A stretch of DNA of 64,000 nucleotides from Punctularia strigosozonata HHB-11173 SS5 (Eukaryota; Basidiomycota; Agaricomycetes; Corticiales; Punctulariaceae), in the NCBI RefSeq assembly GCF_000264995.1, contig NW_006767435.1, forward strand, positions 2,485,774-2,549,773. Reading direction: 5' to 3'. Within the stretch, counting starts at the first letter, position 1. Each line of letters starts with the position of its first letter. The notes below the pieces were generated by a model. The model was not told the origin of the DNA. It saw only the letters and a program-made list of their open reading frames with translations, and ran no database searches. The position numbers were made by a program, and so were the translations under genes. Shown here piece after piece: positions 4,404-33,970 of this stretch.

Positions 4404-6821
4404 ATGTCCTCTCTTTCAGCGACCGATGTTGCTCTGTTCTCTGTCTTCTTGGGAATGCTGTACGCCTGGAGGCGGCAACGTCGTCCTCCCTTTCCGCCTG
4501 GACCGCCTGGTCTGCCGCTGCTAGGCAATCTTTTACAGGTCCCGACGAAACAAGAATGGCTTACTTATTTGCGGTGGACGAGGAAGTACAGTGCGTAGCG
4601 TTTTCAAGGAGTGAAGGAATTCTATCATGCTCACCGGAATATCTAGACTCGCCCATCATCCACTTCACGGCTCTGGGACAGCATTTCATCGTCTTGAACG
4701 ATGCAAGGACCGCAGGAGACCTATTCGGTACGTCTCTTGTATACACTACAATCTCATCGCCGATTCGATATGGATATGTCAGATAAGCGATCGTCCAAGT
4801 ATAACGATAGGCCCCAACCTATCATGCTGGCCGAACTGTGGGTTCTATTCAACCCTAAAGGGATCACTCTCATGTACAAATGCAGCGTCGACTTGCCGAA
4901 GTTTAACTTTGGTAAGGGCGAACTGATATATGATGCGCGGGCTATAGGTGATGGGACTCATGGCATTCATAGGTTTTATGCCCTACGGAAATCGGTGGCG
5001 TGCAAGCCGGAAGGCGAACAACGCTCTGTACTTATGTCGGGACAATAAACTGAAAAGAGCCTTTTTAGATCTTTCACTCGCAGTTCCAAGAATCGGCCGT
5101 CAGGAAGTTCCGCCCGAGAGAGATAGAAGGTGCTCACGAGCTACTTCGCAATATTCTGGAACATCCGGCCGAACTCTTCCAACATTTGCGCTAGTAAGCA
5201 TGGAACAGCGTCGCGTGGTCTCCATCGTGCTCAGTGTTGTTTTTCCCTTCGATTCAGCTACCCGGGCAGCCTCGTCTTGTCGGTGGCGTATGGTATCAAG
5301 ACCGTTCCTAAGGGCGATCGGTACCTCTATTGGGCCGAGAAAGCAAACGAAGGCATTATGGAGGCAGCAAACCCGCATCTCGTCGAATTTGTGCCTTTTC
5401 GTAAGCCTTGTCTGCTGTCATCCACCTCAGCCGACTCTTAGCTGTTTTCACAGTGAAATATTTCCCCGACTTTTTGGCTAGCTTTAAGCGGAAGGCAAAA
5501 GTGTGGAAGGAGTGGACAACCACAGCCTGGAATACTCCTTTTGTTCATGTGCAGAAGACTTTGGTACGCATTCCCGATTGTATTTACACCTGTCGCGTCT
5601 GAATGTAAGCGCTGTGACAGGCCGATCCTTCACCCGACACCAATATAGCAACCTCTCTGGTCGGGATGGCCCTTTCTGCCGCTGACGAGAAAGAGGACCA
5701 GGTGTTCCACGAGGAAAGCGTGAAAGCCGCTGTATGTAATCTTCACTGGTCCTGCATTGCCCTACATCTAAACCCGAGATCACAGGCCGGCGCAATGTTC
5801 GAAGGTGACCCTTGTTTTCGATCCGATGCGTCCGAATTCAAGTCTCATGAATCATCCTATGCTCTTGCAACCAGCCGGGTCGGATACTGTGAGCGGCGTT
5901 ACCTATGGCCACTCGATAAGGGTGTTCTCAAGAAATATTATGGACAGACCGTCAGTGCAATGAAGTGGCTTATACTCTGGATGCTGCGACGCCCGGACAT
6001 CCTTGCTGCGGCACAGAAGCAGATCGACGACGTTGTAGGGCCCGATCGGTTGCCCGAGTTCGCGGACGAAGCCTCGTTGCCGCTCGTATCGGCGATCATC
6101 AAGGAAACGGTGAGTCGTCCTAGACGTTCTGATTCCCTGATTCATGACTGACCTAACCGATGCGCACTGTTACCACTGCAGCTGCGTTGGAGTGCTTTCG
6201 TTCCCCTCGGTATGCCTACTACGTCGTCCGATTAGTGATGCTGATCTTGTGTCGCCAGCTCTCCCGCATCGGCTCACGGAAGACGATGTTTATGAAGGCT
6301 ACTTCATCCCGAAAGGTACGATCGTGCTCGGCAACATTTGGTAAGCCGGGTTCGCAAGCTGGACCGTTTGCACATTCCAACGAACGGCGAAAAACAGGGC
6401 CATGTTGCGTGACGAGCAGACTTGGGGTCCTGACGCGCACGAGTTCAATCCGAACCGCTTCCTCGACGCGTCCGGCGCTCTCGACGCGACGGTCCCGGAC
6501 ATTACACAATCATTCGGTTTCGGCCGACGTATCTGTCCCGGACGTTACATGGCCTGGGATAGCATGTGGATCGCGGTGGCAGGGATGCTCGCAACGTTCG
6601 ACATTGCGAATGCGGTAGACGAGACTGGGCAGCAGAAGACGCCGACCTTGGAGCACACGGACGGCATCGTTATGTGAGTATTAACCATTCATCCGATGTA
6701 CGCATCTTACTGTGTTTCCTTCTGCGTGTATGATAGCTATCCGAAGGATTTCGCATGTTCCATGCGGCCCAGATCGAGCAAAGCCGAGGCCTTGATCCGT
6801 GGGACCCAAGAATTCCTGTAA
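4404..6821 (+). CDS. Cytochrome P450 A (microsomal, O-methylsterigmatocystin-oxidoreductase-like group)
   Basis: The start MSSLSATDVALFSVFL gives a membrane anchor, followed by PPFPPGPPGLPLLGN (proline hinge). Later exons give DRPQPIMLAEL, FMPYGNRWRASRK (helix C), SAVRKFRPREIEGA, I-helix AGSDTVSG, K-helix KETLRW (ExxR), EGYFIPKGTIV, NPNRFLD and heme loop FGFGRRICPG with the axial Cys. About a dozen short introns are needed, and the last exon ends at 6821 (TQEFL). The joint between NAL (about 5031) and FQESAV (about 5091) is one nucleotide short with the only good GT-AG pair, so there is a probable frameshift (mutation or assembly). The joint at 4841/4842 uses a weak donor (gttcta). Family role: NADPH-P450-reductase-dependent hydroxylation in the ER. 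As left-most oxidase of the cluster it is a plausible tailoring enzyme, if functional. Confidence 0.8.
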
Positions 6822-7465
6822 CATATTTCGAATTGACCATGTCGTGCATTCATAATACGATATTCGAGTGATCACGCATACGCTTCTCTGCCTTTGTTCC
6901 ACCCCATGTGCCCTTTGGCTATACATCCGACGACGTCAGTGGCCTCAGATGTAAATGTTCTAAGGCGGATGGGCTGTGAAGTTTCGTCTGGGATTCATTA
7001 AATCGGTACCGGGGTTTGGGTTTGTCCCATAGTAAATGTGTTACAGCATGATCTGATTGAACAATTCATCCACGATTCGACCCCATGGACTGAAGCTTGG
7101 ATCCACTCTCATCCATGTCTTGTCTCCATAATGCGCCCCGTAGTACTCAATTCTAGGCCCACATATGGTTAGTTTCAATGTTGCGTCATGACGATCCACC
7201 TACTTAACCTATATGTATCTGACAATAGTGAGTCAATAGTAAGCAAGATCACCAGGTTGTTTTCAATGAAACCTTGGTCGCACATCAGCCTGATTGTTGT
7301 TCTTTCAATGGGGGCGACTCGTTTCAGCAAAATGCCGATTATATTCGATTAAATACTTCAATCACATAGAAACGAAGGTGACGGTGACTATTAAATGATG
7401 TTATAATGCGATGGAAACGATAGAATAGCGATGACAATGCACTGGGAAATCAAAGATGTCCCCTC
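6822..7465. other. Intergenic, no feature
   Basis: AT-richer spacer between the convergent ends of P450-A and BBE-like oxidase 1. I see no ORF of merit, repeat or RNA gene. Confidence 0.5.
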
Positions 7466-9303
7466 TCACTGGAACTTCCATCCACCGGTGAGGTTCGTCA
7501 ACCCGGTGGGGTCGACCTCGAGCTGAATCTGCCTTAGACGAGGGATCTGATCGCCGAAGAGGCGTTCCGAGGGCGTATCGAACGAGGCGTAGTTCGGGTA
7601 CAAGAACGTGCTGTTGAGATTCTGGCCCTCGGAATTGCCGAAGGCCACGACCGACTCGTCGATCCCCTTCAAGACACCTTGGATGTGCGCATCCTCGGAG
7701 ACATCGTCCCAGCTGGCAATGACGAGCGAAGGGAAGGCGACGTTGTCGGGGTCATGGACGTACGCCGTGGGCTGACCAGCGTGGTGGGAGAAGATGGTCG
7801 GGAGCATGAGCTCGATACCGAACTCGAGCGCACTGCCGGTGTGGTTGAAGACGTCAGGCCCGTTGGTCTGCAAAATGATGAGCAACATCGCAACGGAGAG
7901 GGATCCGGAGGTAACGTACCCCGAGCTGGTCCATGATATGTGCCAACAGGGGCGCCGTGTAGTTCCTGATCGAGATGGAACGCCAGTTGGCGCTAGCGGA
8001 GACGTTCAACACATATATCAGTCAGTACCGTCGATATATTACTCACCGCGAAGACCTCGGAGGACCTTGAAGAGCGCTGATGAGCGAAGCGTAGGATTGA
8101 GTAGCAAGACCGTTGGAGGCGGTTGGAAGGGCGAATAATGCGTCAAAGAGACCTTCGGGAGGAGTCGGTGCGTCATAAAAGAGGAAGTACGACGCGAAGA
8201 CGCCTGGTTGGCCGGAAAGAAATTAGGACTAAACGGCCAACGCATGAAGCATCAGTGGCACATACCGCCCTGTGACGGATCGAATCCGTAGGTCGCCGAT
8301 ATAGCAGCCTTCGGGTCTGTGTTGTTGTCTTGAAAGGCAGCGAGCACGTCGTGTATCGCCGGGATCGCGGAAGAGTTCAATACGACGAGACCGCCCTAAA
8401 GGGACGCTCAGACACAAGCAGCACGGGAAAAGACGACGTAGACCTACGAAGACGGCAGTCTGCGGCTTGGTGGTCATCTTGAGCTGAGTGACTATACCGA
8501 AGTTGTTTCCTCCACCCTATGTGACCATAAGCAAGAGCTCGTAGGGACATGTCGCAACGGGAGTACCTTGAGACCAAAGAACAGGTCGGGACTCGTCTCG
8601 TTGTTCACCGTGAGGATTTTTCCGGTCGGAGTGACGAGCTCGTACTCCAAGGTCGTGTCGCAAGAGAGTCCGACTTGATTAGTGGTCCATGAATAACCAC
8701 CGCCAAGGTTGAATCCGACGCCGACATCAGAGATACGACTGCCCGCGACGGAGACGTTGAAGGGCTCGAGCGCCGCGTACACCTTGTCCCATATCTGGCC
8801 GGTTCCGACCGTTGCAATCCCTGTAGAGGGATCGAACTGGGTCGTGTTGAACCGCGAAAGAGTGATTTGAACGCCGGGGGTAGAGCTCCAGCCCTCGTTC
8901 GTGGCATGCCCTCCAGATTTGACCGCCCATGGGACGCGGTCCTGGCCCAGGATCTTGAGCTGAACAGATCTAGATGAGAACAGGATCCGGGACGAAATGC
9001 GATCATGAACATACAATGTTGGCGACATCTTGCGGAGTGCCAGGCTCTACACTGCAGGTCGAGTTCTGCGAGCTGCTCGAGAACACGTGGAAGATGTCGG
9101 TCTCGTAAGTGGCCGCAGCTGAAAGTGAGAAGGCTGAGTCAGTGGACAGTGGGCATGCGCGAGAGATACGAGTACATACGGGGGAAGAAGACGGCAGAGG
9201 CGTCGGAGATATTGCCGGCTATCTTGTTGCAGGTGTGGAGGAAGCTGGCGGCGGCGACAGTGCGCGCAAGAAGGGCAGCGAAGCCCAAGCTCAAAGCGTG
9301 CAT
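7466..9303 (-). CDS. BBE-like FAD-linked oxidoreductase 1 (secreted)
   Basis: The minus-strand start at 9303 gives a signal peptide (MHALSLGFAALLARTVAAA). First exons are 9303-9180, 9118-9015 and 8959-8567, all in frame. The PCMH-type FAD domain shows VPWAVKSGGHATNEGW with His94 as the expected covalent FAD residue, then SSTPGVQITLSR, LGGGYSW and LTVNNETSPDLFFGLKGGGNNFG. The substrate domain follows, with several N-glycosylation sites (NNT, NHT, NYT), and the BBE C-terminal motif is FLYPNYAS...GLTNLTGGWKF. Family role: flavin-dependent oxidation of alcohols or C-H bonds with O2 as acceptor, in the secretory pathway. The usual GVGG before the LGGG loop reads GVGF, one glycine short of its paralogue. 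No second covalent Cys is seen. It is divergent with P450-B over 526 bp. Confidence 0.88.
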
Positions 9304-9829: not shown

Positions 9830-11930
9830 ATGGACAGATCGGTCTACCTAGCCTTGTCCTGTTTGACATTCTACTTGCTCTGGCGCCTGACTCGCCGAAC
9901 ATCGGACCGCAAGCTGCCTCCAGGCCCCAAAGGGCTCCCGCTGATCGGAAATTTGTTCCAGCTCTCGAACGACGTCTGGCTCCGTTTCTCAGAGTGGAAA
10001 CAAACCTATGGTAAGCCGTTGCCAAAGCTATGCGTGATGTAACCCGCCTGAGCTCCGTGTCTCAGGTCCGATTATACATCTCAACATCGCCGGCCAGAGC
10101 GTAATCGTGGTCAACTCGCATGAAGTCGCGACGGACCTCTTTGACCGACGGCACCAAATCTATTCCGACCGCCCCCGAAACATCGTCGCTTCCGAGATCA
10201 TGAGCGGGGGCATCATGATTGTTTTCACTCCGTACGGCGACCTGTGAGCGCCTCCGTGATTCGCAGAGTTGTTTCAGACCTCAACATTGTACATGTGTCA
10301 CGTAGGTGGCGGAGGATGCGGCGCGCGGCGCATGAAGGGCTCGGCAAACGTGCAGTGGCCACCATGAACACCATCCAGACCAGGGAGGCTCTCCGACTCG
10401 CAAACGACATGCTAAGCGATCCGGCGCATTGGGACGAACACTGCGTGAGGTAGATGACGCCATGGCACTGCGCTTGTTCTCGTTTTCTGACAAGTGTTCA
10501 GAGCAACCGCCTCCGTGGTCTTGTCCAGCGTCTACGGCCAACCTTCCTTGGATAGTCATGATGATCCCATGGTCCACAAGATTACCAACTTCGTGGGCAG
10601 GCGCGTCCGTGCCGCATACCCTGGCGCTCATTTGGTTGAGATCTTCCCGTGGATGATGGCCTTCCCGTCTTGGTTGGCGAAATGGAAGCGAGACGCCGAG
10701 TCGTGGTTTAAAATCGACTCAAAGATGTTTCGCGACCTTTACATGAACGCTTCAACGGTCAAAGTGAGGTCTTTTTCCGGGCTGCATTGAGCACTGCTGA
10801 CTAGTACGTTTTACAGGTTGACGGCCAGGAAGAACACACTTTCTCGACCCTTTTGGCTGAGAATCAAGAACGTTTGACCTTGAACAACGACGAGGCGTCA
10901 TGGCTTTCGGGGGTGTTCTGGTCAGCCTCTTGTCGCTAAGCTTGCTTCCCCTGCTGACCGGCGCATATCAGTGCGGCCGGAACGGAAACGACCGCCGCTG
11001 TCTTGGCTTTCTTCATTCAGGCAATGGTGTGCTATCCCGCGGTGCAAGCTCGTGCTCAAGTGGAGATCGATCAAGTCTGCACGCCCAGCAACCCCCCTAC
11101 CTTCGAGGATGCCGAGCGACTGCCGTACATCCGTGCGATCGTGAAAGAGATACTGAGATGGAAAGCCGTTGATCCTGTCGGTCAGTTGAAATGCGCTTCG
11201 TCACTTCGGGCCCGCTGAACGATATCCATCTCCAGGGCTGCCGCGCCGGGCGACAGAGGTAAGTCAGGATCGGCATCAAATCGGGAACCGGGCAAACATT
11301 GATGCCGTGCTTGCTGCAGGATGACGTATATGATGGTTACTTTATTCCCAAAGGAAGTATCATCATCGCGAACGTCTGGTAAGTCGACACAAATTGATCG
11401 CCGCTACTTGTTTGCGAATGACCGACGATTCATTACCATCTGACAGGGGTATGAACCGCGACCCAGACGTGTACGGCCCAGATGCTGCAGAATTCAGACC
11501 CGAAAGGCATCTGACGGAGGACGGCAAAGTCGTGAGGATACCCCACACCAAGGAAGAAGGTCATGTCACGTACGGCTTTGGCAGGAGGTGAGTATTCTCA
11601 TCGCTGGCACTTCATCGACTTAGATGTATAAATTCTTTTGCAGAATTTGTGCCGGTGTCGGGGTTGCGAACGACTCGCTGTTCATCGACATTGCCACTAT
11701 CCTATGGGCCTGCAGGATTGGGCCCGGTAAAGGCGCCGACGGGAAACCGGTATATGTCGACCCGGCCGGTATCTTGAACACAGGTCTCGAACTGTGGGTG
11801 TGCCCGTGCCTTAAACTAGGTCGCCACTGACGCTCTCCGTTTTAGGCGACCGCCGCCTTTCCCGTGCTCCATCACACCCCGATTCCCATCGGCCGCGGCC
11901 GTTCTGGCCGAAAAGATGGATCGGTTCTGA
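9830..11930 (+). CDS. Cytochrome P450 B
   Basis: The start MDRSVYLALSCLTFYLLWRL is a membrane anchor, followed by KLPPGPKGLPLIGNLFQL. Then come GPIIHLNIAGQSVIVV, IYSDRPRNIVASEIMSGG, helix C WRRMRRAAHEGLGKR, I-helix AGTETTAAVLAFF, K-helix KEILRWKAVDPV (ExxR), DGYFIPKGSIII, EFRPERHL and heme loop YGFGRRICAG. The last intron (about 11795-11846) leads to a terminal exon ending KMDRF at 11930. All landmarks of a microsomal class II P450 are present in about 500 residues and around ten introns, with no stop seen in the frames I joined. It is a close paralogue of P450-C at 20886-22988. The residue after the heme-loop glycine differs (CAGVGVAND here, CVGRHVAND in P450-C). It is divergent with BBE 1. 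Confidence 0.88.
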
Positions 11931-12224
11931 CGTCGCGCGGAGGATGCATCAACAGCTTCCAAAATGATGTCGTCGCACGGCATACTTGCACCGCTGCAAT
12001 TCATTCGATTAGTTCCGTAGACTCAGCGCCATGTACTCTAAGCAGGACGTTTACTGCTCTTTGCTGCCGAAGAGTTGTGCATTTGAGGGCGCGTTTCATC
12101 GAGAGGTTAGGAAGGACCTTGTCAATTCATCACCTTTATGGACCGCTTGCACTATGCTCCGAATGTTGGTCATCGCTCTGTACGGCGCTGACGACAAGTA
12201 CACTCCAAACATAGTCCTGAATCA

Positions 12225-12528: not shown

Positions 12529-13618
12529 TTATTGTGAGCCAGCTCCGTGACCGGGAGTCCAACGCACTTCCGCATTACTGAAAGCTTCCAGCTTCAGATC
12601 TTGGGCGAAGTGCGCCACGCGGGCCTTCTCAGCGTATTCCTTGAAAGAGTCTCCCTTCCTCAACGCCGCATCCACCGCGTCCTCGCCTAGCAGTACGTGG
12701 AGCGGCAGCTCCGGTTCGTACACGAGAGCATGTATCGCACGCGCGGCCTTGTTGGGGTCGCCGGGTAAGGTCGCAATGGGGAGTTGTTGACGCATGATGG
12801 CCGTGAGGCTGCCGGAGTAGGCATATGCCGGGTGCTGCGGTGTGTCGACGAGTGAACCGCTCTTAGTACCGCGGGTCTCGAACGCGCCGGGCTCGACGAT
12901 TATGAGCCTAATGTTCCAGGCCGGGTTGAGCTCCATCGACAGAGACTCCATCAGGCCGTCGGCAGCTGTTAGCGAGGGGCGGCAGGAACCACGGATTAGC
13001 TTACGCACGGTTCTTGAGCATAATAAAGTCCACGTACCGTACTTGCTGGCGGCATAAAACCCAAGGCCGGGCTTGGGTTCAAAGGCAAGCATAGAAGACA
13101 TGTGTAGAAGTTGGCCGCCCTGAGGCTGGTTAACATCGCGGAAAAAGCGGATAGCTTCGGAGGCGACGGCAGCCATTCCCCAAAAATTAACCTCGAAGAG
13201 AGCGCGTGCAGCGTCCGAAGGTGTACCCTCGACTTCAGCCAGGATGCCATATCCCGCTGCAAATATCGCTCAGTATCGGCGGACGGATACGTGTGTAGGG
13301 AACAATACCATTGTTGACTACAACATCAATACGGCCGAATGTTTCTGTGGCTTTAGCAAACGCAACCTTGATCTGTTCAAGCTTTGAGACGTCCAGCTGG
13401 AGGACTAGGAGCTGCGACGCCTTGTATTTGTCAGAAAGATCGTCGAGCACTTCGGGATTGCGTAGGGTGGCGACGACGGTATCTCCCTTCTCGAGAACAT
13501 ATTCCGTTATAGCACGTCCAAATCCGACAGAGCAGCCAGTGACTGCGGGCAAACCTCCTCAATCGAATGACCAGGCAATAAACAGCGTGCACGCACTGAA
13601 CCAAATTTTCGGAGCCAT
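12529..13618 (-). CDS. Short-chain dehydrogenase/reductase 1 (classical SDR)
   Basis: The start at 13618 gives MAPKIWFI joined over a 5' intron to TGCSVGFGRAI, the Rossmann TGxxxGxG motif. VNNAG follows over the next intron. The catalytic YAASK sits in GLGFYAASK with an upstream Ser in MSSMLA, and VEPGAFETRG completes the fold. The protein ends PGHGAGSQ at about 285 residues, usual for the family. It probably oxidises or reduces a hydroxyl/ketone with NAD(P). It is clearly paralogous to SDR 2 at 32912-33970, which shares the intron after the first eight codons and the same PxxIRLxxVEPGAF-type block. It is divergent with BBE 2. Confidence 0.9.
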
Positions 13619-13996: not shown

Positions 13997-16057
13997 ATGC
14001 GCGTGCTACGCTACGGCTCTGTGATACTCGTTGCGCGCGCTGCATCAGCCGCTAATGTTCTCGACTCACTCGGAGACTTGTTCCGTTAGTAAAATCGTAT
14101 TCTACTGCGCATTGGTTGCCTAACGCCTGTCGTTCAGCGTCCTCCACGTTTCAGGCTGTCTTGAACACCTGGAACTTCTTTGCTGGGAACGTTTCTGACC
14201 GTCAGTACCTCGCAGATCTCAGCTTTTGAGCAGGAAAACTGACTGGACTTAATAGATGCTCCACCGAATCTGAGCGCTTGCCGTCTCATTGCTGGAAGGA
14301 TTTCTGATGCATCCGCCGTTTTCTACCCTGGTCAGTCAACTCGTTCTTGAACCTCGCGTTCACCATTTGCAACTCCGATCTACTAGACGCTGTCGCATAT
14401 GAAACGGACATGGTGCATGCATTCGGCAGCAGCGCACAGAACGCGACATGCAGTGTACAACCCGCCAATGCTCAAGACGTCGCTGAAGTCGTTCGTATAT
14501 TGTCTTCCTCTTGCCCTCAATACGCTCACGATCGTATCTATCAGGTGAACGTTCTTTCGGAGATGCGCGTTCCTTGGGCGATCAAATCTGGCGGACACGC
14601 TTCAAATCCAGGCTGGAGCTCAACCCCGGGTGTACAAATCACTCTGTCGCGCATCAACGCGACGACCTTCGATGCGGCTACACGGGTCGCCACCGTCGGT
14701 GCCGGGGCACGCTGGGAGACGGTCTATGCGGCGTTGGACCCTTATAACGCGTCCGTTGCGGGCGGTCGCGTGTCCGGTGTGGGCGTGGGCGGGTTCGTGC
14801 TCGGCGGTGGTTACTCGTGGTTCACCAACCAGGTTGGTCTCACAATTGACACCGTTGTCGAGTTCGAGCTAGTCACGCTGGCGGGCGACATATTGACGGT
14901 CAATAATGAAACGTATCCGGACCTGTTCTTTGGGTTGAAGGTGAGATCTGGTGCTCCCTCTCTGGGTCTGTACCCTCAATGATGCCGACTCAGGGCGGAG
15001 GAAACAACTTTGGTGTCGTGACACAAATCAAGATGAAGACTCACCAACAGGGTCCAGTATATGTGCGCTGCACCATCTGGTTATGTTTCAATGCCTCTGG
15101 TTCTGATCGCCATTGCAGGGAGGAATGGTGATCGTCGATGCCAAGGCCATGGCGCAAGCACACAAAGAAGTTTCGAAGTTCCAAGACTCGACCACCGATC
15201 CGCGTGCTGCAATGGCGGTGATCTATGGATTCAATCATGCACTTGGCGGTAAGGCTTGCCTTCACTACGTTCATCCCATGCCTGAGGGCCTTCGTCTTGT
15301 ATCCTAGGACTTTTTGGGTCGTTCTTCCTCTTCTACGATGGCCCAACCCCACCGGAAGGACTGTTCGACGGGCTGCTTTCCCTTCCGGCTGTATCCAAAG
15401 ATATCCACGTCCGATCAATGAGCACGCTGATAGGAGGACTGTCAGGCCCCGCATACTCCCCTCGGTAAGTAGGCTGATCAGAAGGCTACTCTCGCCGTTC
15501 TGATTCATCGTCGCTAGCGGGGCGTACCGTGCTCTTGCCGTCAAGAACTACACAGTACCTATGCTGGAGCACATAGCCGGCGAACTCACGGTTTGTCGCA
15601 TCTTGTATACTCTGCGATAATGCGTAGCTCATCGTGGTCCTGATGACAGGTCCACGCTTCAGAACTCTTCGCGCACACGGGAACACAGTTCATGATCGCC
15701 ATCGAGCCGATGCTTGACTCGATCTTCTCCCACCATGCCGGACAACCCACGGCCCTCATTCACGACGACGGCGACTTCTTCGCGCCAACGGTGTTGCTCG
15801 CCACGTGGGATAATGCCGCGGAAGACAAGCGCATGCTCGATATCCTCAAGGCAATTGACGATTCGATCGTTGAATTCGGCGTCAAGGCCGGGCAGAAGAT
15901 CGGGCCAGGGGATGCGATCCTGTACCCGAACTACGCGTCGATTGACACGCACGTCGAAAACTTCTTCGGCCGAAACCTTCCGGAACTGAGGAGGATTCAA
16001 GAGAAGTACGATCCTCATGGATTGACCAAGTTGACCGGAGGATGGAAGTTCGCTTGA
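13997..16057 (+). CDS. BBE-like FAD-linked oxidoreductase 2 (secreted)
   Basis: Exons 13997-14084, 14138-14200, 14256-14330 and 14387-14490 join in frame and give a signal-peptide start (MRVLRYGSVILVARAASA) and a 5' extension that BBE 1 lacks. Exon 5 (from 14545) carries VPWAIKSGGHASNPGW with His128 as the likely covalent FAD anchor. Then follow STPGVQITLSRI, GVGVGGFVLGGGYSW, NNETYPDLFFGLKGGGNNFGVVTQ, SFFLFYDGPTPPEGLFDGLL and the C-terminal ILYPNYASID...GLTKLTGGWKFA. Role as in the BBE family: O2-dependent flavin oxidation in the secretory route. About 500 residues and ten or so introns, with no broken frame seen. It is the close paralogue of BBE 1 and convergent with BBE 3. Confidence 0.88.
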
Positions 16058-16536
16058 GATGATGTAAAATCAAAGCATATGCAACGGGAATCTCAAAGGC
16101 GTGTGCCGATTATGAATGGCCATTCAGAGTGATCGATACATATGGACTCGGTCTTCACATATAAGATATATGCGTGAACAAGACAAGACAATCGGGAAAT
16201 TAACACTTTCACCTTGTATCCCGGCGAAGAAGCCCCCACAGAACGGTAATAAATTAACGCAATTTTGAGTATGAGCCAATAACTAATCAACTTCCAACTC
16301 GGCTTGGCTGAATGGTGCTCCTGGGTTTCCATAGATCAGCGGTGCTTTCAGGTTAGCGATTCCGTGCTATGGTTTATGTCGTAATCTTTCATTACTGCGA
16401 AGCATTATGAATAATGAATCGATATTCCAGGACTACACATATGAGTGAACCGCGGTGAAAGGAACGTTTGGAGGCGTGCACCGCTCATAATTCATCACAT
16501 CCAGAAGTTCAACTAGACGGTGCCGCTTGAACGTCC
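16058..16536. other. Intergenic between convergent BBE 2 and BBE 3
   Basis: AT-rich 3' spacer. I see no gene, repeat or structured element. Confidence 0.5.
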
Positions 16537-19061: not shown

Positions 19062-20424
19062 ATGTTAGGCGAAAGGATTGCTCTCGTTACTGGCGCCGCG
19101 CAAGGTATAGGACGTGCCGTTGCATTGCGACTCGCCGACGATGGCTTTGACGTGGCTGTCAACGATATGATACCGAAGGCTACGGAGCTCGAAGAGCTTC
19201 AGGCGGAAATTGAAGGTAAAGGCCGTCGGGCTTGTGTGGTGCTCGCGGACATATCCGACGAGAGGGGGGTTCAGAGGATGGTAGACGATGCTGTAGCTAC
19301 GCTCGGCGGGCTGGATGTGGTGAGCTGCTTCATATTGTGTATGCGACGTAAGCCCGGATCTGACCAAAGCGGGGGGGTTGCGTAGATGGTTGCGAACGCC
19401 GGGATCACACTGCTGAAAGGATTCATGGATAGTGAGTTCAGGCCAGTCCTGGGCCGGGTCTGAAGCAAGTCTGAAGCAAGTTCTGTGTCGGTGCATTGTT
19501 CCCCCAAGCTACCGTTGCTGAATGGGATCGTCTTTTCGACGTTAACGCGCGGGGAGCCATGCTCTGCTATCAGATTGCAGCCAAGGTTATGATCAAGCAG
19601 GGCAGGGGCGGTCGAATCGTCGGTAGGCAGGGATAACGCAGGTCGGGCATGTGGCGTGTGACTTGATTACTATTATAGGTGCCTGTTCTTCGGCTGGAAA
19701 GAAAGGTGTCCTCTTCCAAACTGGTGGACTTGGACCTTTTGCTTACATCCATCTCCAGCAATTCCTTCATTCAGCGCTTATTCTGCCACCAAGTATGCCG
19801 TGCGGGCAATTACGCAGACAGCTGGTGTGCCTTGCTCGCCACGTGTACACCGGAGAAGCGCTGAACTCTCTGTAGCCGCAGAGCTCGGTAAATATGGCAT
19901 TACAGTCAATGCATACGCCCCTGGTCCAATTTCGGGACACATGAGTACGTCACTTGCGACTGCTGTGGGACAAGCTCTCTGAAACGTGACGTTGCTCAGT
20001 GGACAGCATGATTCTTGAGACCGCGTCGGCCGTTGGAGCGGATCCAGATACGATCAAGAAACAAGTGCGTCAACAGTTTATACCTCCATAAACTGTCATC
20101 CATTGAACTGAGGAGGGTCTGTCGTTGTTTGATTTGCTTTTGTAAAGCTTAACGGTGCCGCCGCTGTAGGACATACCGGCGAGCCACGAGACGTGGCGAA
20201 TCTGGTTTCCTTCCTTGCGTCTCAAGAATCTCGGTTCATCACAGGTCAGGGAAAAACAAGGCTTGATCATGCCGTCTCATCTGAGTCTGACGAACGTGTC
20301 TTCTTTTCATGTGGTTCCTAGGCCAAACTGTGAGTATAATCTAGCAGATGAATGATCTTCTTCTCCGTGTGCTCATAGCTTCATCCGGCAGATCGTGTGC
20401 GATGGCGGGGTCATATATGATTAA
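19062..20424 (+). CDS. Short-chain dehydrogenase/reductase 3 (acetoin/diacetyl-reductase-like)
   Basis: The start MLGERIALVTGAAQGIGRAV carries the TGxxxGIG nucleotide motif. Later exons give NDMIPKATELEEL, MVANAGI (NAG motif), DVNARGAML, ACSSAGKK and YSATKYAVRAIT with the catalytic YxxxK. The tail is AAELGKYGITVNAYAPGP, GEPRDVANLVSFLAS and IVCDGGVIYD. The end at 20424 is reached through small introns, one leaving an exon of only eight nucleotides (GCCAAACT, near 20323). About 260 residues, the usual family size. Role: NAD(P)-dependent carbonyl/alcohol interconversion, cytosolic. It is not closely related to SDR 1 or 2. It is divergent from BBE 3 and convergent with P450-C. Confidence 0.88.
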
Positions 20425-20885: not shown

Positions 20886-22988
20886 TCAAGAGCGATCGAT
20901 AGTTTCCGCAAGAACAGCTGCGGCGGACTCGAACCGAGGTTTGACTGAGACCTGGAAAGGTTTCGGTCGTCTGACAAGAATTCGTTAGTGCCGAGGGCGC
21001 CGACAGAATGGGATAATCCAACGGACTCACACAACAAGGCCCGTATTGATAAATCCGTCCGCGTCTATCGGGACCGGTTTACCGTTGGCGTCCTTGATAG
21101 GCTCAATCTTGCAGGCCCATAAAATCGTTGCAATCTCGATGAAGAGCGAATCATTCGCTACATGTCGACCGACACAAATCCTGGTGAGAAGCATTGGTAT
21201 GAGTCCGAGGATCATATTAGGGTGTCTAAGACACACCTCCTCCCGAAGCCGTACGTGACATGGCTTTCTTCTTTGGTGTCGGGGATGCTCACAAAACCGC
21301 CCTCTCTGTTAAGATGTCTACCAGGGTTGAAGTCTGCAGCGTCTGCGCCGTACACCTCAGGGTCTCGATTCAAGGACCTGATAAGAGGGATGGATTAGGC
21401 CACCAGACGCAGCAGTTTGCTCTCTCACCAGACATTGCCAACGACTATGCTTCCCTTAGGGATATAGTAACCTTCATACCAATCATCCTACAAGATCAAG
21501 ACGGCGCGTTCAGTCTCTACCGGCGCGACAGTCACATATACTCACTTGCATCAATCTGTGGGGGAGGCCTGACACCACATATCAATACACGGCATAAATT
21601 GATATGTGCCAACTTGCCAATGGGATCGATTGGTTTCCATCGCAAGGACTCCTTGACAATGGCGCGGATGTATGGTAATTGCTCGTAGTCATCAAACGTG
21701 GGAGCAGCGCCAGGAGCGAGAACTCGATCGAGCTCTTCCTGGGCACGAGCTTGGACTTCCGGATAAAGGACCATAGCTTGCATGAAATAGAGCATGACGG
21801 CAGCGGTCGTCTCCGCTCCTGCAGCACTAGAGTGAACCAGTCAGCACACGGATCCAACGTAACGAAACATCTTCAATGGCATACTATAAAGTTCCGGACA
21901 ACCAGGACGACTCTTCATTACTCAGGTTATGTCGTGCCCGATCCTCCGCGACAGATGTAGAGAAGGTATCGTGTTCTTCACCATCAACCTTTGGACAGAC
22001 AAATCGTTAAAAATGGGCACATGATGATAAGACATAATGCGACAATATCAACTCACTTTCACTTTGGAGGCGCTATTAAACAGATCGATAAACATGGCGG
22101 AGTCCACCTTGTACCATGCCTGAGCATCACGCTTCCACTTCGCCATCCAAGACGGTAGATACTTCATCCACGTGAAGATCTCAACGAGATGAGCCCCAGG
22201 GTAAGCTGCGCGGACTAGCCGTTCGGTGAACTCGTTGATTCGACGGATTGTCGGATCACCGCTGTTCCGAATCGGGGGCTTTCCGTAGAGTACCGACAGG
22301 ACTAGCGAGGCCGTCGCTCTACAAACGGGGGAATGTGCTCAGGACAGGCGGTGTAGTACTAATAGATATATTATTCACCTTTGAGTGTGTTGATCCCACC
22401 GCGCCGGATCAGTGAGGAGATCGAATGCAAGGTGCAAGGCCTCCTTGCGTTGAAGAACACGAAACGTGGGTACTGTGCGTTTTCCCAGTCCTTCGTGAGC
22501 CGCTCGCCGCATTCTCTTCCACCTAGTGGACAATAGTCAATGGTTGCACACCAGGCAGTCAGAACGATAGACATACACATCATTGAATGGCGTGAACACA
22601 ATCATAAGACCTCCACTCAAGATTTGCGAGGCGACGATGTTCCTCGGACGGTCGGAGTAGATCGACGCGCGCCGGTCAAGTAGATCCGCCGCCGTTTTGT
22701 GGTCATTGAGGACGACGACGCTCTGCCCTGCAACATTGAGGTAGACGATGGGCCCTACCAAATGCGCGTTCAACTTTCATGGCACAGGGCAGCGTCGATG
22801 AACATACCGTACGCCTCCTTCCACTCGGCAAACCGAAACCAAATATCATCTGACAGCTGGAACAAGTTTCCCACCAACGGAAGCCCCTTGGGTCCAGGTG
22901 GAAGCTTGCTAGTGAGCCTCCGGCGACTGAGTCTCCAAATTAGGTAGAATACCGCGCAAGAGACTGAAATATAGACGATTTTCGCCAT
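20886..22988 (-). CDS. Cytochrome P450 C
   Basis: The start at 22988 gives the anchor MAKIVYISVSCAVFYLIWRL, then KLPPGPKGLPLVGNLFQL, GPIVYLNVAGQSVVVL, YSDRPRNIVASQILSGGL, helix C WKRMRRAAHEGLGKR, and AYPGAHLVEIFTWM. I-helix region AETTAAVMLYFMQAM, K-helix KESLRWKPIDPI (ExxR), EGYYIPKGSIV, NRDPEVYGADAADF and heme loop YGFGRRICVG follow. The terminal exon gives VKPRFESAAAVLAE and ends DRS at 20886. Landmarks and spacing match P450-B through its length, so it is a duplicate of that gene. About 500 residues, apparently intact. It shares a 953-bp divergent promoter with the sesquiterpene synthase, which makes it the best candidate for the first tailoring hydroxylase. Confidence 0.88.
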
Positions 22989-23941: not shown

Positions 23942-25268
23942 ATGCCCACATCCCAGCCAATCATCTATCTCCCTGACAATCTTGCCTCTTGGCCATGGCC
24001 TCGCAGTCTCAACCCACATTACGAAGAGTGCAAGGCCGACTCAGCCGCGTGGCTTGAGAGCTTCAAGGCTTTCGATCCCAAGGCGCAGTCGGCATTCAAC
24101 CTCTGTGACTTTAGTGCGTGCATTTCTTCGCGTTGTATGTGCTATTGCTTACGGTGATCATAGATCTTTTGGCCTCATTGGCTTATCACAAAGCGAGCAA
24201 AGGTATTGCCAACCCGCTGCGCATGAGTAACAATCACGGTTGACTGCCTGTCTCGCGGAATATAGCCAACAATCGCACCGGCTGCGATCTCATGAATATG
24301 TTTTTCATCGTCGACGAGTACACCGACATCTCAAATGCTCACGACGCTCGCCTCATCGTTGACGCCGTTATGGATTCCCTGCTTCATCCTGATCGCGTGC
24401 TGCCTGACGATGAATCCCCTGATCGGAACACCCTTGCCGGCCGTGTAGCTCTCGCTCGCATAGTGGCAAAAGAGTAGATTCTATCTCATACCGTCTTCTA
24501 CCGGAGAAATCTGACTCTAAGATGTTTAGATTCTGGGAGCGCGGATTCCCCAAAGCTAGCGCGTCGTCTAAACGTCGCTTCCTTGCCACCTTTTCCACCT
24601 ACCTCGAATCCGTGGTCGAACAAGCCGCTGACCGGGACCGAAGCCACATCCGCGACGTTGACAGCTACCTGGAGAACCGTCGCGAGAACATCGGAGCTTG
24701 GCCTTCTTTCGCCCTGCTGGAGCTCGACACCGACATTCCGGACGAGATAATGAATCGTCCAGAAATGTACTCGCTTCATATCGCCGCGATCGACATGCTC
24801 ATACTTGGAAATGTTCGTCCCCCCCCCGCTCGATTATTCTCGTTACAATCTGACGGTGTTTTGGATGTACAGGATATGTGCTCTTACAACGTCGAGCAAT
24901 CTAAAGGTGACGATCGACACAACATCGTCACCATCCTCATGCATCAGAAGAACATTGGCGTCCAGGATGCCATGTACGAGCTCGCGAAGATTCATGCTGC
25001 GGCTGAGGAACGTTTCCACACCGCGCGCGCGGCTGTCATGTCGTGGCCGGAGCTCGACACGCAGCTGACAGAGTACGTGGACGGCCTTGGGAACTGGGTC
25101 CGAGCGAACGACTCGTGGAGCTTCGAGAGCCAGCGTTATTTCGGTACTGCTGGCGTGGAGATAGAGCGTACTAGGCAAGTACGCCTCCTCCCTAAGCACT
25201 CGGCGCGGTTTATGGCACCGCCTCCTCGTCCGGTATTTCCTGCCAAGGTCGCCGTAGCCGTTGCTTAG
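23942..25268 (+). CDS. Sesquiterpene synthase (class I terpene cyclase)
   Basis: Exons 23942-24113, 24164-24202, 24266-24462, 24522-24812 and 24873-25268 join in frame to 364 residues. The metal-binding motif is D87-E-Y-T-D91 in [15 protein letters not shown]. The NSE motif is N233-D-M-C-S237-Y-N-V-E241, followed by [12 protein letters not shown]. The C-terminal RY pair is in [10 protein letters not shown]. Family role: ionises farnesyl diphosphate with Mg2+ and cyclises it in the cytosol; basidiomycete members make cuprenene-, protoilludene-, muurolene- or cadinene-type skeletons. Which one cannot be told from the sequence by eye. Intron 4 has a gttcgt donor that other genes here also use. 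It is the scaffold-forming enzyme of the cluster, divergent with P450-C. Confidence 0.93.
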
Positions 25269-28229: not shown

Positions 28230-29655
28230 ATGCACCTTTCCTTTCCCTTGAATCAGCTCCGAGACGCTCCTGTGAGGCTTTGCGTCAAGGAGCTCGGAGA
28301 TGGGCTGTCCATTGAATACACGACTACGACCAAATCATTTCCTATGACCGACAGCCAATGCGATTGCGCTTGCGCAGTCAATGTCGAGTTCATACACGAC
28401 GGAAATCGTGTTTTCTTCACCATGTCGGCGACTCAAATGGCTCGCTCTATCCCGCATCAGTCTCTCGTGAATGCTGGAGATGTGTCGTCAGATTCTAGTT
28501 GAGTCACTGACTCGTCGATGGTATCCTTCACTTACTCCGTCTTCTGATACGCTCTTGTAGACTACCAAGACTTGGAAACGTCAAGTAAAGCTACAAACTG
28601 CAGTCTGCCGGCGAGCAACGTCGCAGAGGATGGTCCACATCCAAACGGTGCGCTTGCATGGTCATCCACAAATGAAGTTCCCACTGATCTTCATTCCGCA
28701 GATTCAGCGGACAGAATGACGGGCTCGATGTATGATTCCGAGATGGCTCCCGTATTAGAATTGGCTACGAATGACGTGGGCCTCAAGTACGACGATCAAA
28801 CGGGTAGTGCGCAAGGCCTCATTCAGGGTACTCGCCCCTCTACTACTCACTCCGTCCGCAGGGTGTACTGATAACAAGGACCTTTCCTAGGCAGCGATTC
28901 GGTGACCTACTCTCCCTTCATTACTAAATCTCTCCCTAATATCAACATGGACATGGCGCCGAGCGTCAATTCCTCGAGCGACGAGCCCGGAGATATATCC
29001 AGTTCGTCTTCGTTCAATATTACAATTTCTCCGCCTTCATCGCTAACCGCGTGCCAAAGATTTCGATGTTCCGCAAACTTGGTTTACGGATTTGATGCAA
29101 TTAGCCGGAATGCCATCCATGCCAGAGAATTCTATATTCGCTTTTCCAGAAGTAGGAACTACATCGCCCCTCGATGATGCAGTTCTTTCAGACCACGACC
29201 AGTCTAGTAATACACCCGGGTGTTCGCCGACAACCCCTCTAGAAGACATGGACTCCATGACTCCGGAGGCCGACCCCGCTGTCGGCACTCGTCGACGCCC
29301 GCGACCGCGTCGTATCCTTTGTCTTCATGACGGCTGCAAGCGACGATTCACGTCGGAGTATACACGCACGGTCCATATGAAGACGCACGGTCCCAAATTA
29401 CCCCGCAAGAAACTCATGTGCTCTAGCGGGTGCGATGAGACCTTTTCAAGGTTCTTGACTTCTGACTCCTATGATACTGCCATATGTCTAAATCTTCTTA
29501 GACAGCACGACCGGCTCCGACACGAGGTGATTCGACACGGTCGAGAATGTGAACATGTGTGCAAAACCTGCTTCAAATTCTTCTCCAACGCCACCACGCT
29601 CAACGCACATAAGTGCCGTGGGCCTGGAGAAGGAAGAACTTTGCGGTACAGATAA
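28230..29655 (+). CDS. C2H2 zinc-finger transcription factor, candidate cluster regulator
   Basis: Exons 28230-28497, 28561-28827, 28891-29001, 29060-29450 and 29502-29655 join in frame to 396 residues. The N-terminal 250 residues are Ser/Asp-rich and look like an activation region. A basic stretch (TRRRPRPRR) then leads into three C-terminal fingers: C-x4-C-x12-H-x3-H (CLHDGCKRRF...HMKTH), C-x3-C-x12-H-x4-H (split by the last intron) and C-x2-C-x12-H-x-C (CKTCFKFF...HKC), the last with Cys for the final His. Intron 3 uses a gttcgt donor, a CTAAC branch site and an AAG acceptor. It lies next to the synthase in the same orientation. That it regulates the cluster is inference from position. Confidence 0.82.
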
Positions 29656-31599
29656 GGTGAGATTCGCAACCGATTCAATTCATGGCATAGTTACGAATGG
29701 CAGGACCCACAGAGCGCTTTGAACGCCCAGGAGTCGACTGAGCACTGTACGATAGATATTCTTAGAAACACCACGATACAAGACGCATACGCATGCGATT
29801 TAGATAGGCTTCCCCATGCCAAGGGGCGGTCGTCCCCGGCAGCGCCGGCGATGAATGTGATTATGTGTTTTATGTTTTGATTATACGCAGTTCTCCATAC
29901 AGATCTGGTTTTTGATACAGGGTTCAGGTTTGGAGGGGCTTGATAGAGGGTGAAAGGATAAGTACGACGGCATGCCACCGCAGATACGTGCAGTAAATAC
30001 TCCGTTACAGGAACGTGTATGAATCCCGGTTTCCGGTTTCAGCGCCTTCAACCGACAATTTGAACTCGTCTTCGTTCTATGAGTCACCACTGCGAATGCC
30101 ACCGGTATCGGCAATTAGAGTGTATCTGCAGCTGGTAAAAGATCGCCGTCATGGTAAAGATCCACACCGTGATAGGAAAATTTGAGAGCTCCACGGGCAC
30201 TGAGAAAGGCATCGCGGCGAGGCGAAAGTGGTCCGTGTGCGGGCTAATATTCAACGGAATTGCCCGGTATAGCTACATGCTCCATGATTTGTGGGGATGC
30301 ACCTACTTGCAAAGGGAAAATGGAAAATGGAAAAGGTCTTGACCTCCCGTGTTGTGGAGCAGAGGGATCGGCGCACTGGCGATGCGGTGCACGGTAAGTT
30401 TCGGGCGTCCGCGGGGTAATGTTGGGATGACACTTCCGCTTTAGTATTATCCGCTTTAAGTAGAGTTATGTACGTGGCACAGATATGTACAAGGATATGC
30501 TAATCATCACGAATATTCTTGGCGATAACGCATATTCGTGTACATATCTACAGTGAGAAAATAACTGACCTCCGCGTGTGTGGCGATTTTGGGCGCGGCA
30601 GATACAGTACCCGACCAGTCCTTTGTACACCAAAAATGTAATTTGACCATTACTCCATGTCCTCCCATTCATACCTTGTAAAAGCTATCTCATATGATGC
30701 ACATTGTGCTTCTGCACAAACTCAGCATACTGTTATGGCTTGCAATGTGTTGAGGAGCTGTGTGGATGCCGATTACTGGCTGTCACACGCTTAAGACAAA
30801 AACTATTCATTTGCACACCGGCTATGTCACGCCGGCCTCTGCCAAAACGGCTGTCACGGCTACCATATTTGGAAGCCAAGATGGCTGTGCGACTCAAATC
30901 TGTCACACTTTCCCCGTCGTTTCGGCTGTTTTGCACATGGTTTGCACCCTGGTGGACGTAGTTCCGCATTGATGTCCACATAAGAGTACGGAAAATATGC
31001 CTTGGGTACACTTGGTTGATACAAGGAGCTGCGGTTGTCAGTAGACTCCGCAATCGTAGCTCTACATACAACGTGCAAGGAGCAGAAATTTGGTCAGAAT
31101 GGGACTTCACGCATTCTGGACAGTCTTACAATTAATCGAGTCGATAAATCGCATCCCATGCAGTATCAAATATTGTAGCCAGCATGTATATTAACTATAT
31201 GGTACTGTAGTTCGAAGAGGAAGTAGCTAATTCTGAGCGAGGGGAGCCAGATCAAGGCAGGTGTACAAGTGACTGGTACTGTACAAGTGACTGATCGGGC
31301 ACTGTACACTCTATTGCGACTTCGGCGGAGAAGCCATGTGAAGGGCAACACTATGGCCTCAGCGAAATCGTCATGAGGAGGGTGAGTAACGTTAGCGGCT
31401 GGCACGAGGAAGTTAAGATAGGGCTCATTCCGTCTCCCGGGATAGTACGCATGCCTTTGATTGGCCCGGAGGCCAAGGCCGATCTTACGCAAACAGCATG
31501 AATACAAGTATCGGCGGCCTTGTGTATTGCGCCGGGTCAGTCAGCGTTGCAACTGTCGGCGCATTGCCATACTGAGGGAGGTACGATATGCGATTCATT
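29656..31599. other. 1.9-kb non-coding spacer
   Basis: No convincing gene on either strand. A short internal duplication (ctgtacaagtgactg-like, near 31265-31310) is the only structure noticed. Confidence 0.5.
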
Positions 31600-32384
31600 T
31601 CAATACATCTGGAACGCTACATGTACGACCGAGGTTTCCGCCAAATCGTTGACCTCGCCAACAAGGGTCGCATAGATTGGAGTGTCGGCGATCAGTTGCA
31701 GGTGGGCCTTTAGCAAATATTCAGTATGGAAAGGACGAAACTAAGAATTGATAGGGACCTCGACGCTGGCGTAACCCCTAACGGCAAAATAGAGTTGGTC
31801 ATCTTCACGCGTAATACCGACCGCCCCTTGCGCTCCTTCAGACCCATAGAACATGTCCCATATTTTTGCCAACCTGAACGGCAAACCTGTGAGGGGAGTG
31901 TCACAGAGACAAGAGAAACCGTACCCTTGGCGGTTTTCGGGTCTTCTAAGGCGTACAGTTGCGACTTCACAAACAGGAGAGTCGAATGACGGGCGCGGCC
32001 CCGTCGTCGCCGGTAGAGCAATGGACGGGAACGGGATATGATACACCTTGGCGTTGGCCGGGTCGGCAATCTTTCGAAGGACGTCGGCGACGGGCTCGGG
32101 AATAGAGCCGGGGGTATTTTGATGCCAAGCCGTCGACTCTAGAGACCAATTGTCGATGTGAATATGGAAGCGCGGTACAAAAGGAACTACGAACCGACTA
32201 CCAACCACAGGATCTTCGCACCGTGGGGGCCGGGTTCGACCTGCAGCCCGGCATAGGTGGCAATAGTGCCGGGCGCGCTGGCCGCAGCGTGAGCAACAGA
32301 CTTGATGGCCTGGTCCGGGGCGTGCGCGTCGCTGGAGGTGAACGAGAGGACAAATATCGATGAGAGATCTGGAGAACGAGACAT
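31600..32384 (-). CDS. ABM-domain (antibiotic biosynthesis monooxygenase-like) protein
   Basis: Exons 32384-32195, 32138-31925, 31873-31759 and 31707-31600 join in frame to 208 residues. The N-terminal half has SSIFVLSFTS, IKSVAHAAASAPGTI, AGLQVEP and ILWLVVESTAWHQ. The second half has CEVATVRL, WDMFYGSEGAQ, LYFAVRGYASVEAH and VVHVAFQMY. These are two tandem dimeric alpha/beta-barrel (ferredoxin-like) repeats, as in basidiomycete ABM proteins. Family role: some members are cofactor-free monooxygenases acting on cyclic or aromatic substrates; others have no known activity. There is no signal peptide. It is divergent with SDR 2 over 527 bp, which supports but does not prove cluster membership. 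The last intron ends in AAG. Confidence 0.72.
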
Positions 32385-32911
32385 GGTGATGAGCGAGGGG
32401 CGAACCAACTGAAATCCAGAGCCATGACCCACAGAGATAAATACCCGGCTAGCGCAGGTGAGATGACCTCTACCGCGTCCGTTGTGCCATATCGTCGAGA
32501 ACACCAACGTCAACGTTTTGAGCCATAGCCACAACATGGCCAGTAGTCGTGACACGGCCGTTGAGTGACCATGTAGCCATCGCGAACGACTTGCCCTTTC
32601 CGATCGCGCTGCGAAAAACAATTAAAACAAATTGGCTTATCATGAAGACGTCATGACGTTCAGCTACTTCAGGAGAGACCGGGGGTGGATGAGGCAGAGA
32701 TATTGCCGTCTAAGGGAGGCATTGCCGCCGGTTGCCGAAGGTGCTCCGGTGACTATCTGACCTACCGTGGTTGTCCGGAACAACTGACTTCGTGGAACGT
32801 CATCCAAGACGCCGTTCTCATAGCTTTCACAGGACCGCGGTTCTATGGCTCAGTCAGCATGATATACAAGTAGCTGTACGCCAGCCATTCCAACTCGATC
32901 TCATCTTCAAC
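32385..32911. promoter_or_regulatory. Shared divergent promoter, ABM protein / SDR 2
   Basis: 527 bp between outward-facing starts. No clear TATA box is seen. Confidence 0.35.
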
Positions 32912-33970
32912 ATGGCTCCCCGCGTATGGCTCAGTGAGTGGTGCATCATGTCCGTAGAGTTGCCTCGTCCACTAACTCGCATATCGTCAAGTCACTGGCA
33001 GCTCTGTCGGTTTTGGTCGCTTGCTGACAGAGTTGGTGCTTTCGAAAGGAGAAATCGTCGTCGCGACGCTCCGCAAGCCGGAAATCCTGGCCGATCTTGC
33101 GGCCAAATATCCGCCGTCGCAGCTCCTTGTCGTTAAATTGGATGTCACCAACGAGGAAGATGTCGATGCTGCGTTCGCGAAGGTGAAAGAAACGTTCGGC
33201 CGCCTCGACATTGTGGTCAATAACGGTCGGTCATCGGGCTTCCAAATAATACCGCGATATTGACAATCCCTTGACAGCCGGTTATGGACTTCTCGCCGAG
33301 ATCGAGGGGACACCGCTTAATCTTGCTCGTACCATGTTCGAGGTCAACTTCTGGGGCGCCGCCAACATCGCACGCAGGGCGGTTGAGTTCTTCCGCGATG
33401 TAAACAAGCCGCAGGGTGGTCGCCTCCTGCACCTCACCTCGATCGTCGCCCTCCAGTCGCAGCCCGGGAACGGATACTACAGCGCTAGCAAGTGCGGTAA
33501 GCAGCTTCGTGATCCTTGTCCAGCCGGACAATCAGCTGACATCTTCTTTAGCGTCCGATGGGCTGATCGAGGCATTCGCAAAGGAGATCGATCCGTCGTG
33601 GAACATCAAACTCACGCTCATCGAACCAGGCGCGTTCCAGACTCGCGGCACAAGCCCAGAGTCTCTTGTCTCCGCACCCCAGCACCCGGCGTACACGTTC
33701 CCTGGCTCCATTACGAAGGCAGTGCGCGACTACGTGCCAGTAGCGACCTTGCCTGGTGATGCAGAGAAGCTCGTTCACGCACTCTACGCGATCGCGAATG
33801 AGAAGGACACCCCGCTGCGTGTGCCCCTCGGCGACGACGCCGTGAACGCAGCACTTTCGAAGGCGAAGAGCCTCAAGGCAGACGCTGAGCGAGTGCAGAA
33901 GGCGGAGTATGCGCAGGACCTCCTCCTTGACACTCCAGGTGGAACGGAGCCCCCGGGCTGGCGTCAGTAA
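32912..33970 (+). CDS. Short-chain dehydrogenase/reductase 2 (classical SDR, paralogue of SDR 1)
   Basis: The start MAPRVWLI joins over intron 1 to TGSSVGFGRLL, the nucleotide-binding motif. LDIVVNNAGYG spans intron 2, EVNFWGAANIA follows, and the catalytic GYYSASKC (YxxxK) precedes intron 3. KLTLIEPGAFQTRG, PGSITKAVRDYVPVATLPGD and the end GTEPPGWRQ complete about 285 residues. Intron positions match SDR 1, and blocks such as PQHPAY, VATLPGD/IATLPGD and LGDDAV/LGEDAV are shared, so the two derive from one gene. Role: NAD(P)-dependent alcohol/ketone conversion, substrate unknown. It is the right-most enzyme gene of the cluster. Confidence 0.9.

What the first reader, a model, noticed from the sequence alone, without database searches (positions are those of the whole stretch)
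4404..33970. Sesquiterpenoid gene cluster with three P450s, three BBE-like oxidases, three SDRs, an ABM protein and a C2H2 regulator
A terpene synthase with intact DExxD and NSE motifs sits among ten oxidative genes and a regulator in 30 kb, and ordinary conserved genes begin right after. Three secreted-type flavin oxidases beside one cytosolic terpene cyclase is unusual. It suggests late oxidation of an exported or lumenal terpenoid.
Basis: partly seen in the sequence, partly recalled or inferred. Interest (0 to 1): 0.8.

Follow-up and report, generated by a model that had tools for sequence, protein, structure and literature searches.

The report
Wood-decay fungus sesquiterpene gene cluster
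A wood-decay fungus carries, side by side, a gene that looks like a ringed-terpene maker and about ten genes for oxidising its product; this looks like an ordinary, so far uncharacterised fungal natural-product cluster with a few less usual enzymes.

Summary
The cluster is real. The window is Punctularia strigosozonata HHB-11173 SS5 (Corticiales). About 29.6 kb hold a sesquiterpene synthase (DEYTD, NDMCSYNVE), three P450s, three PCMH-type flavin oxidases with leader-like N-termini, three SDRs, a three-finger C2H2 protein and one protein modelled as a two-domain α+β barrel. The synthase is closest to Δ6-protoilludene-type (1,11-cyclising) enzymes: solved relative 8H72, 51% identity. P450-B/C (65%), FAD oxidases 1/2 (56%) and SDR1/3 (57%) are duplicate pairs. 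Among eight synthase loci found in this genome, only this one had a matched flavin-oxidase locus within 30 kb.

Corrections. The flavin oxidases are 'BBE-like' only loosely: the histidyl-flavin site is kept, the second (cysteinyl) site is not, so they should be monocovalent. 'ABM' has fold support only. P450-A has one unresolved exon. An eroded fourth P450, cut by an assembly gap, lies upstream.

Precedents exist: a FAD oxidase beside the naematolin synthase, BBE-like enzymes in subglutinol-type pathways, an ABM enzyme in fumagillin biosynthesis. So the mix of families is not surprising. Product, co-expression and conservation in other species could not be tested. Verdict: new member of a known kind, modest interest.

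The parts
4404..6821 (+). P450-A, I-helix AGSDTT, heme motif FGFGRRICPG; the exon with its C-helix motif (NRWRASRK) does not join the next exon in phase by canonical GT-AG, so the model is provisional there
7466..9303 (-). FAD oxidase 1 ('BBE1'), PCMH type, leader-like N-terminus, 11 sequons
   Evidence: (P0123)
9830..11930 (+). P450-B, AGTETT, YGFGRRICAG; 65% identical to P450-C
12529..13618 (-). SDR1; 57% identical to SDR3
13997..16057 (+). FAD oxidase 2 ('BBE2'), PCMH type with BBE C-terminal domain; 56% identical to oxidase 1
   Evidence: (P0122)
16509..18367 (-). FAD oxidase 3 ('BBE3'), distant (26-28%) PCMH oxidase; best solved match mitomycin radical oxidase
19062..20424 (+). SDR2, closest to acetoin reductase models; last small exons provisional
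20886..22988 (-). P450-C, AGAETT, YGFGRRICVG
23942..25268 (+). Sesquiterpene synthase, DEYTD and NDMCSYNVE; Delta6-protoilludene-synthase-like
28230..29655 (+). C2H2 protein with three zinc fingers, candidate regulator
31485..32384 (-). Protein PUNSTDRAFT_132141, modelled as two-domain alpha+beta barrel (ABM/SchA-like)
32912..33970 (+). SDR3
776..3457 (+). Eroded fourth P450 just upstream: in-frame stop before a heme-like motif, N-terminal half not recognised, 412-N gap at 1896-2307 with a 300-nt perfect repeat around it

Best explanation
A sesquiterpenoid biosynthetic gene cluster of Punctularia strigosozonata. SHOWN by sequence: gene content, metal-binding motifs of the synthase, His-only flavin site and leader-like N-termini of the oxidases, duplicate pairs inside the block. 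INFERRED: the cytosolic synthase cyclises farnesyl diphosphate by 1,11-closure (trans-humulyl cation), most likely to Delta6-protoilludene or a near relative. P450-B and P450-C (and P450-A if intact), anchored at the ER, hydroxylate it; SDRs interconvert alcohols and ketones. The flavin oxidases, in the secretory route or outside the cell, take allylic alcohols on to enals, enones or lactones with O2. The alpha+beta-barrel protein adds an oxidation or cleavage step, and the C2H2 protein controls the block.
For: TPS: PF19086; 321 homologues at E<=0.001, the 120 listed all with PF19086, among them solved Delta6-protoilludene synthase 8H72 (51%) and Armillaria Pro1 (49%); best solved chain 8H72 at E 2.6e-110, next 8gy0 at 6.4e-70; in the tree it falls near the lineages of both (fork open). 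Oxidases: His in 123 of 123 aligned rows, Cys at the second covalent site in 0 of 123; best solved matches EncM (oxidase 2, E 2.4e-23) and mitomycin radical oxidase (oxidase 3, E 2.3e-21), both with early models. Duplicate pairs. Contrast with 7 other TPS loci. Precedents PMC7778616, PMC7019648, PMC7020470.
Against: No expression, product or conservation data. The TPS branch is long (0.86) at an open fork, so the skeleton is a guess. SDR2 looks like an acetoin reductase. P450-A may be damaged. Apart from Punctularia itself, no contig size of a listed FAD-oxidase relative matches that of a listed TPS of the same species, compared by eye (120 of 321 and 120 of 853 hits listed), so pairing in other species has no support here, nor is it excluded.
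Confidence: 0.7

Rival explanations
1. The pathway is a 1,11-type sesquiterpenoid, but the skeleton is not protoilludene: for example humulene/caryophyllene, pentalenene, sterpurane, tremulane or hirsutane.
For: Long branch outside the Pro1 and 8H72 lineages. Clade III makes protoilludene, pentalenene and aromadendrene among others (PMC10608071, passages). In Hypholoma fasciculare, enzymes 87% identical to Omp6/7 were reported to give humulene (PMC7019648 and PMC8181146, passages).
Against: The two relatives in the hits that are named as characterised protoilludene synthases (8H72, Pro1) are near.
Confidence: 0.4
2. Only part of the block is one pathway: the flavin oxidases are extracellular carbohydrate oxidases (CAZy AA7-like) and SDR2 is an acetoin reductase, lying next to a smaller TPS-P450 cluster.
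For: One of the 120 listed homologues of oxidase 2 is named AA7 (P0171; another, P0183, is named 6-hydroxy-D-nicotine oxidase). Leaders and sequons. SDR2's best model is acetoin reductase, 265.6 bits against a cut-off of 304.35.
Against: The cysteinyl-flavin site used by glucooligosaccharide oxidase (recalled) is absent. Three such genes interleave with P450s and SDRs, while 0 of 7 other TPS loci had a matched one within 30 kb.
Confidence: 0.2
3. The cluster is decaying and makes no product today.
For: Eroded fourth P450; unresolved C-helix exon in P450-A.
Against: TPS, P450-B, P450-C, three oxidases and three SDRs have open spliced models with their motifs.
Confidence: 0.1

Closest known systems
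Melleolide / armillyl orsellinate cluster of Armillaria gallica (PMC7778616; listing and passages seen)
   Same: Protoilludene synthase with several P450s beside it; Pro1 is 49% identical to this TPS.
   [quoted passage not shown] here no GMC or methyltransferase among the modelled genes, but PCMH flavin oxidases, SDRs and a barrel protein.
Naematolin candidate cluster of Hypholoma (PMC7019648; abstract and passages seen)
   Same: 1,11-type cyclase with an adjacent FAD oxidase that yields oxidised caryophyllanes in A. oryzae, plus two P450s. A Hypholoma sublateritium protein (P0127, 49%) is among the closest relatives of FAD oxidase 2.
   Different: One FAD oxidase named there against three here.
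Fumagillin cluster of Aspergillus fumigatus (PMC7020470; passages and gene table seen)
   Same: Sesquiterpene-derived product, P450, ketoreductase and an ABM-superfamily monooxygenase (Fma-ABM, oxidative cleavage).
   Different: Fma-TC is an integral membrane cyclase, with a PKS and other partners; no sequence comparison with Fma-ABM was made.
Subglutinol-type diterpene pyrone clusters (PMC8235479; one passage seen)
   Different: Diterpene pyrones; different scaffold. No sequence comparison was made.
EncM and other monocovalent PCMH flavin oxidases
   Same: Best solved match of FAD oxidase 2 (E 2.4e-23, early model); His kept, second-site Cys absent.
   Different: EncM is a bacterial polyketide enzyme (recalled); the match covers mainly the FAD domain (query residues 136-283).

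Membership tests
Basidiomycete clade III (1,11-cyclising) sesquiterpene synthases | PF19086 with DExxD and NDxxSxxxE metal motifs | tested here: met
   PF19086 E 7.8e-43; DEYTD 87, NDMCSYNVE 234. These motifs are shared with other clades
Basidiomycete clade III (1,11-cyclising) sesquiterpene synthases | Groups with characterised clade III enzymes | tested here: inconclusive
   Tree of 123 rows (119 hits, this TPS, 3 of the 7 other synthases of this genome): near the 8H72 and Pro1 lineages, long branch, open fork; no characterised enzyme of another clade included
Basidiomycete clade III (1,11-cyclising) sesquiterpene synthases | A 1,11-type product such as Delta6-protoilludene | not testable with these tools
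   Needs expression and GC-MS
Berberine bridge enzymes (bicovalent flavin) | 8alpha-histidyl site | tested here: met
   His in 123 of 123 rows, 122 of them distinct
Berberine bridge enzymes (bicovalent flavin) | 6-S-cysteinyl site (place in BBE/GOOX recalled) | tested here: not met
   I, V and Q in oxidases 1, 2 and 3; Cys in 0 of 123 rows at that column
Berberine bridge enzymes (bicovalent flavin) | PF08031 BBE domain | tested here: inconclusive
   Over cut-off in oxidase 2 (23.6 bits), under it in oxidase 1 (18.4 against 20.6), not listed for oxidase 3
ABM (antibiotic biosynthesis monooxygenase) superfamily | Sequence match to a family model | tested here: not met
   No Pfam match at E<=1; no NCBIfam match at E<=0.001
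ABM (antibiotic biosynthesis monooxygenase) superfamily | Alpha+beta (ferredoxin-like) barrel fold, here two in tandem | tested here: inconclusive
Melleolide-type cluster | GMC oxidoreductase and methyltransferase beside the synthase | tested here: not met
   None among the modelled genes of 4404-33970
Naematolin-type cluster | FADox orthologous to the Hypholoma enzyme | not tested
   Its sequence was not in the text seen; no supplement look-ups allowed
Co-regulated fungal gene cluster | Shared expression under one regulator | not testable with these tools
   No RNA-seq at hand

The most novel reading that the evidence does not exclude
Three monocovalent, lumen- or secretion-targeted flavin oxidases act in series with a taxonomically isolated alpha+beta-barrel oxygenase to finish an exported 1,11-type sesquiterpenoid of new architecture: a pathway split by the ER membrane, with hydroxylation on the cytosolic side and flavin oxidation on the other.
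Probability: 0.12. Interest if true: 0.55.

Novelty: new member of a known kind. Interest (0 to 1): 0.27.

Why it matters
If the inference holds, it gives a compact, genetically defined route to a highly oxidised 1,11-type sesquiterpenoid from Punctularia, a genus for which my searches found no protoilludene or sesquiterpene pathway paper (listings of an open-access library only). It also offers a test of how far terpenoid oxidation happens inside the secretory route. The barrel protein, whose only detected relative was a paralogue in the same genome, is a small enzyme-discovery target.

Tried and rejected

Mended: P450 E-values, oxidase 1/2 identity (56% with the corrected model, 54% with the early one), BBE-domain status, status of the ABM fold test, scope of the literature claim.
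Full report
ORIGIN. The synthase matches P0001, 'terpenoid synthase [Punctularia strigosozonata HHB-11173 SS5]', 93% identity over the whole query, on a contig of 2,824,611 bases, the size of the contig that holds the window. The species belongs to Corticiales, Basidiomycota. The genome copy has 33.6 Mb in 32 contigs.

GENE MODELS. ORF listing does not handle introns, so I wrote a small gene finder, trained on the window and 20 further 10-kb stretches of this genome. Hand corrections: P450-A I-helix exons, C2H2 fingers 2-3 and the start of the barrel protein; FAD oxidases 2 and 3. Outside check: oxidase 1 equals NCBI's P0123; oxidase 2 has 519 aa against 520 in P0122; the barrel protein is 100% identical to P0121 over 88% of my model. 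My TPS model keeps a piece that NCBI's omits, and 11 extra residues against 8H72 near residues 118-138 suggest that one junction is still off.

OBSERVATION. From left to right: P450-A, FAD oxidase 1, P450-B, SDR1, FAD oxidase 2, FAD oxidase 3, SDR2, P450-C, TPS, C2H2, barrel protein, SDR3. To the right, the piece scanned from the first gene had no Pfam match; then follow an HhH-GPD glycosylase, a protein kinase, a Mem_trans carrier and Mnd1; to the left lies a metallo-beta-lactamase-fold gene (not all flanking models were scanned). Its first piece matches PF00067 only from profile position 235, a stop lies before a heme-like motif, and a 412-N gap flanked by an exact 300-nt repeat cuts it. P450-A has I-helix and heme motifs, but the exon with its C-helix motif (NRWRASRK) does not join the next exon in phase with GT-AG, as I read; sequence error, odd splicing or damage cannot be told apart.

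IS IT MORE THAN CHANCE. The genome gave eight loci matching PF19086. With matches to PF01565, PF00067 and FAD oxidase 2, the window TPS has two merged flavin-oxidase loci (oxidase 3 was merged with oxidase 2) and four P450 loci within 30 kb; of the other seven TPS loci 0 have a flavin-oxidase locus and 1 has a P450 within 30 kb. These are lower bounds: matching is exon by exon, only 92 of 266 P450 candidates were scored, and I left out rows taken as further exons. The same tally has 19 flavin-oxidase-like loci elsewhere in the genome. Inside the cluster P450-B/C are 64.5% identical, oxidases 1/2 56% and SDR1/3 57%, so the block grew partly by duplication.

THE SYNTHASE. 321 proteins at E<=0.001; the 120 listed all carry PF19086, among them the solved Delta6-protoilludene synthase of Dendrothele (8H72, 51%) and Armillaria Pro1 (49%). 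Best solved chain 8H72, E 2.6e-110, far ahead of 8gy0 at 6.4e-70. A tree of 123 rows (119 of the listed hits, this TPS and three of the seven other synthases of this genome) places it near both, but on a 0.86-long branch at an open fork. PMC10608071 (abstract and passages) describes clade III as 1,11-cyclising via the trans-humulyl cation. I take 1,11-cyclisation as likely and Delta6-protoilludene as the best single guess.

THE FLAVIN OXIDASES. In an alignment of the three with the 120 listed hits of oxidase 2 (two of which are oxidases 1 and 2 themselves), the flavin histidine is kept in 123 of 123 rows, and Cys occurs in 0 of 123 at the second covalent site (the place of that site in BBE and GOOX is recalled). 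They are therefore probably monocovalent, as EncM and 6-hydroxynicotine oxidase are (recalled). EncM is the best solved match of oxidase 2 and mitomycin radical oxidase of oxidase 3 (early models). All three have hydrophobic leaders; sequon excess is clear for 1 and 2, not for 3, and absent in the other nine proteins. No signal-peptide predictor was available. Oxidase 1 and seven relatives from Flammula, Hypholoma, Moniliophthora and Paramarasmius share a Cys (GxSCDT) that oxidase 2 lacks.

MECHANISM. Shown: gene content, motifs, leaders. Inferred: FPP, then a 1,11-cyclised hydrocarbon in the cytosol; P450 hydroxylation at the ER; SDR alcohol/ketone steps; flavin oxidation of allylic alcohols in the secretory route; a late barrel-oxygenase step; C2H2 control. 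SDR2 is closest to acetoin reductase models, below their cut-off, so its place in the pathway is least sure.

COMPARISON. PMC7778616 (listing, passages): protoilludene synthase, four P450s, GMC oxidoreductase and methyltransferase. PMC7019648 (abstract, passages): caryophyllene-type synthase plus adjacent FADox giving oxidised caryophyllanes in A. oryzae. PMC8235479 (one passage): BBE-like enzymes tailor diterpene pyrones. PMC6116744 (summary, passages): in Postia placenta the three P450s found to hydroxylate protoilludene lie apart from the synthase loci. So clustering occurs but is not universal, and terpene synthase plus flavin oxidase is known. The new points are small: three such oxidases together, and an isolated barrel protein beside them.

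VERDICT. Observation confirmed; interpretation partly supported; a new member of a known kind.

Noticed in passing
window 1896-2307, repeats 1479-1778 and 2374-2673: 412-N assembly gap with a perfect 300-nt repeat around it, probably a scaffolding artefact inside a P450 remnant.
   Followed up: partly
G000:C13:345904-347211 (locus L031): Diverged paralogue of the barrel protein, beside what reads as a ribonucleotide reductase large-subunit gene, not in a recognisable cluster.
   Followed up: partly
locus L031, C13:348869-349559 and 349895-351079: Two neighbouring gene models with identical C-terminal protein sequence: recent tandem copy or assembly duplication.
   Followed up: no
window 7466-9303 (FAD oxidase 1): A Cys in GxSCDT is shared with seven agaric relatives and absent in FAD oxidase 2; possible functional split of the duplicates.
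   Followed up: partly
loci L005 and L006 (C20:337 kb, C10:775 kb): Two closely similar synthase genes; the L006 model is truncated and looks eroded.
   Followed up: no
window 25269-28229: About 3 kb between synthase and C2H2 gene with no convincing gene: one low-scoring model without a Pfam match.
   Followed up: partly
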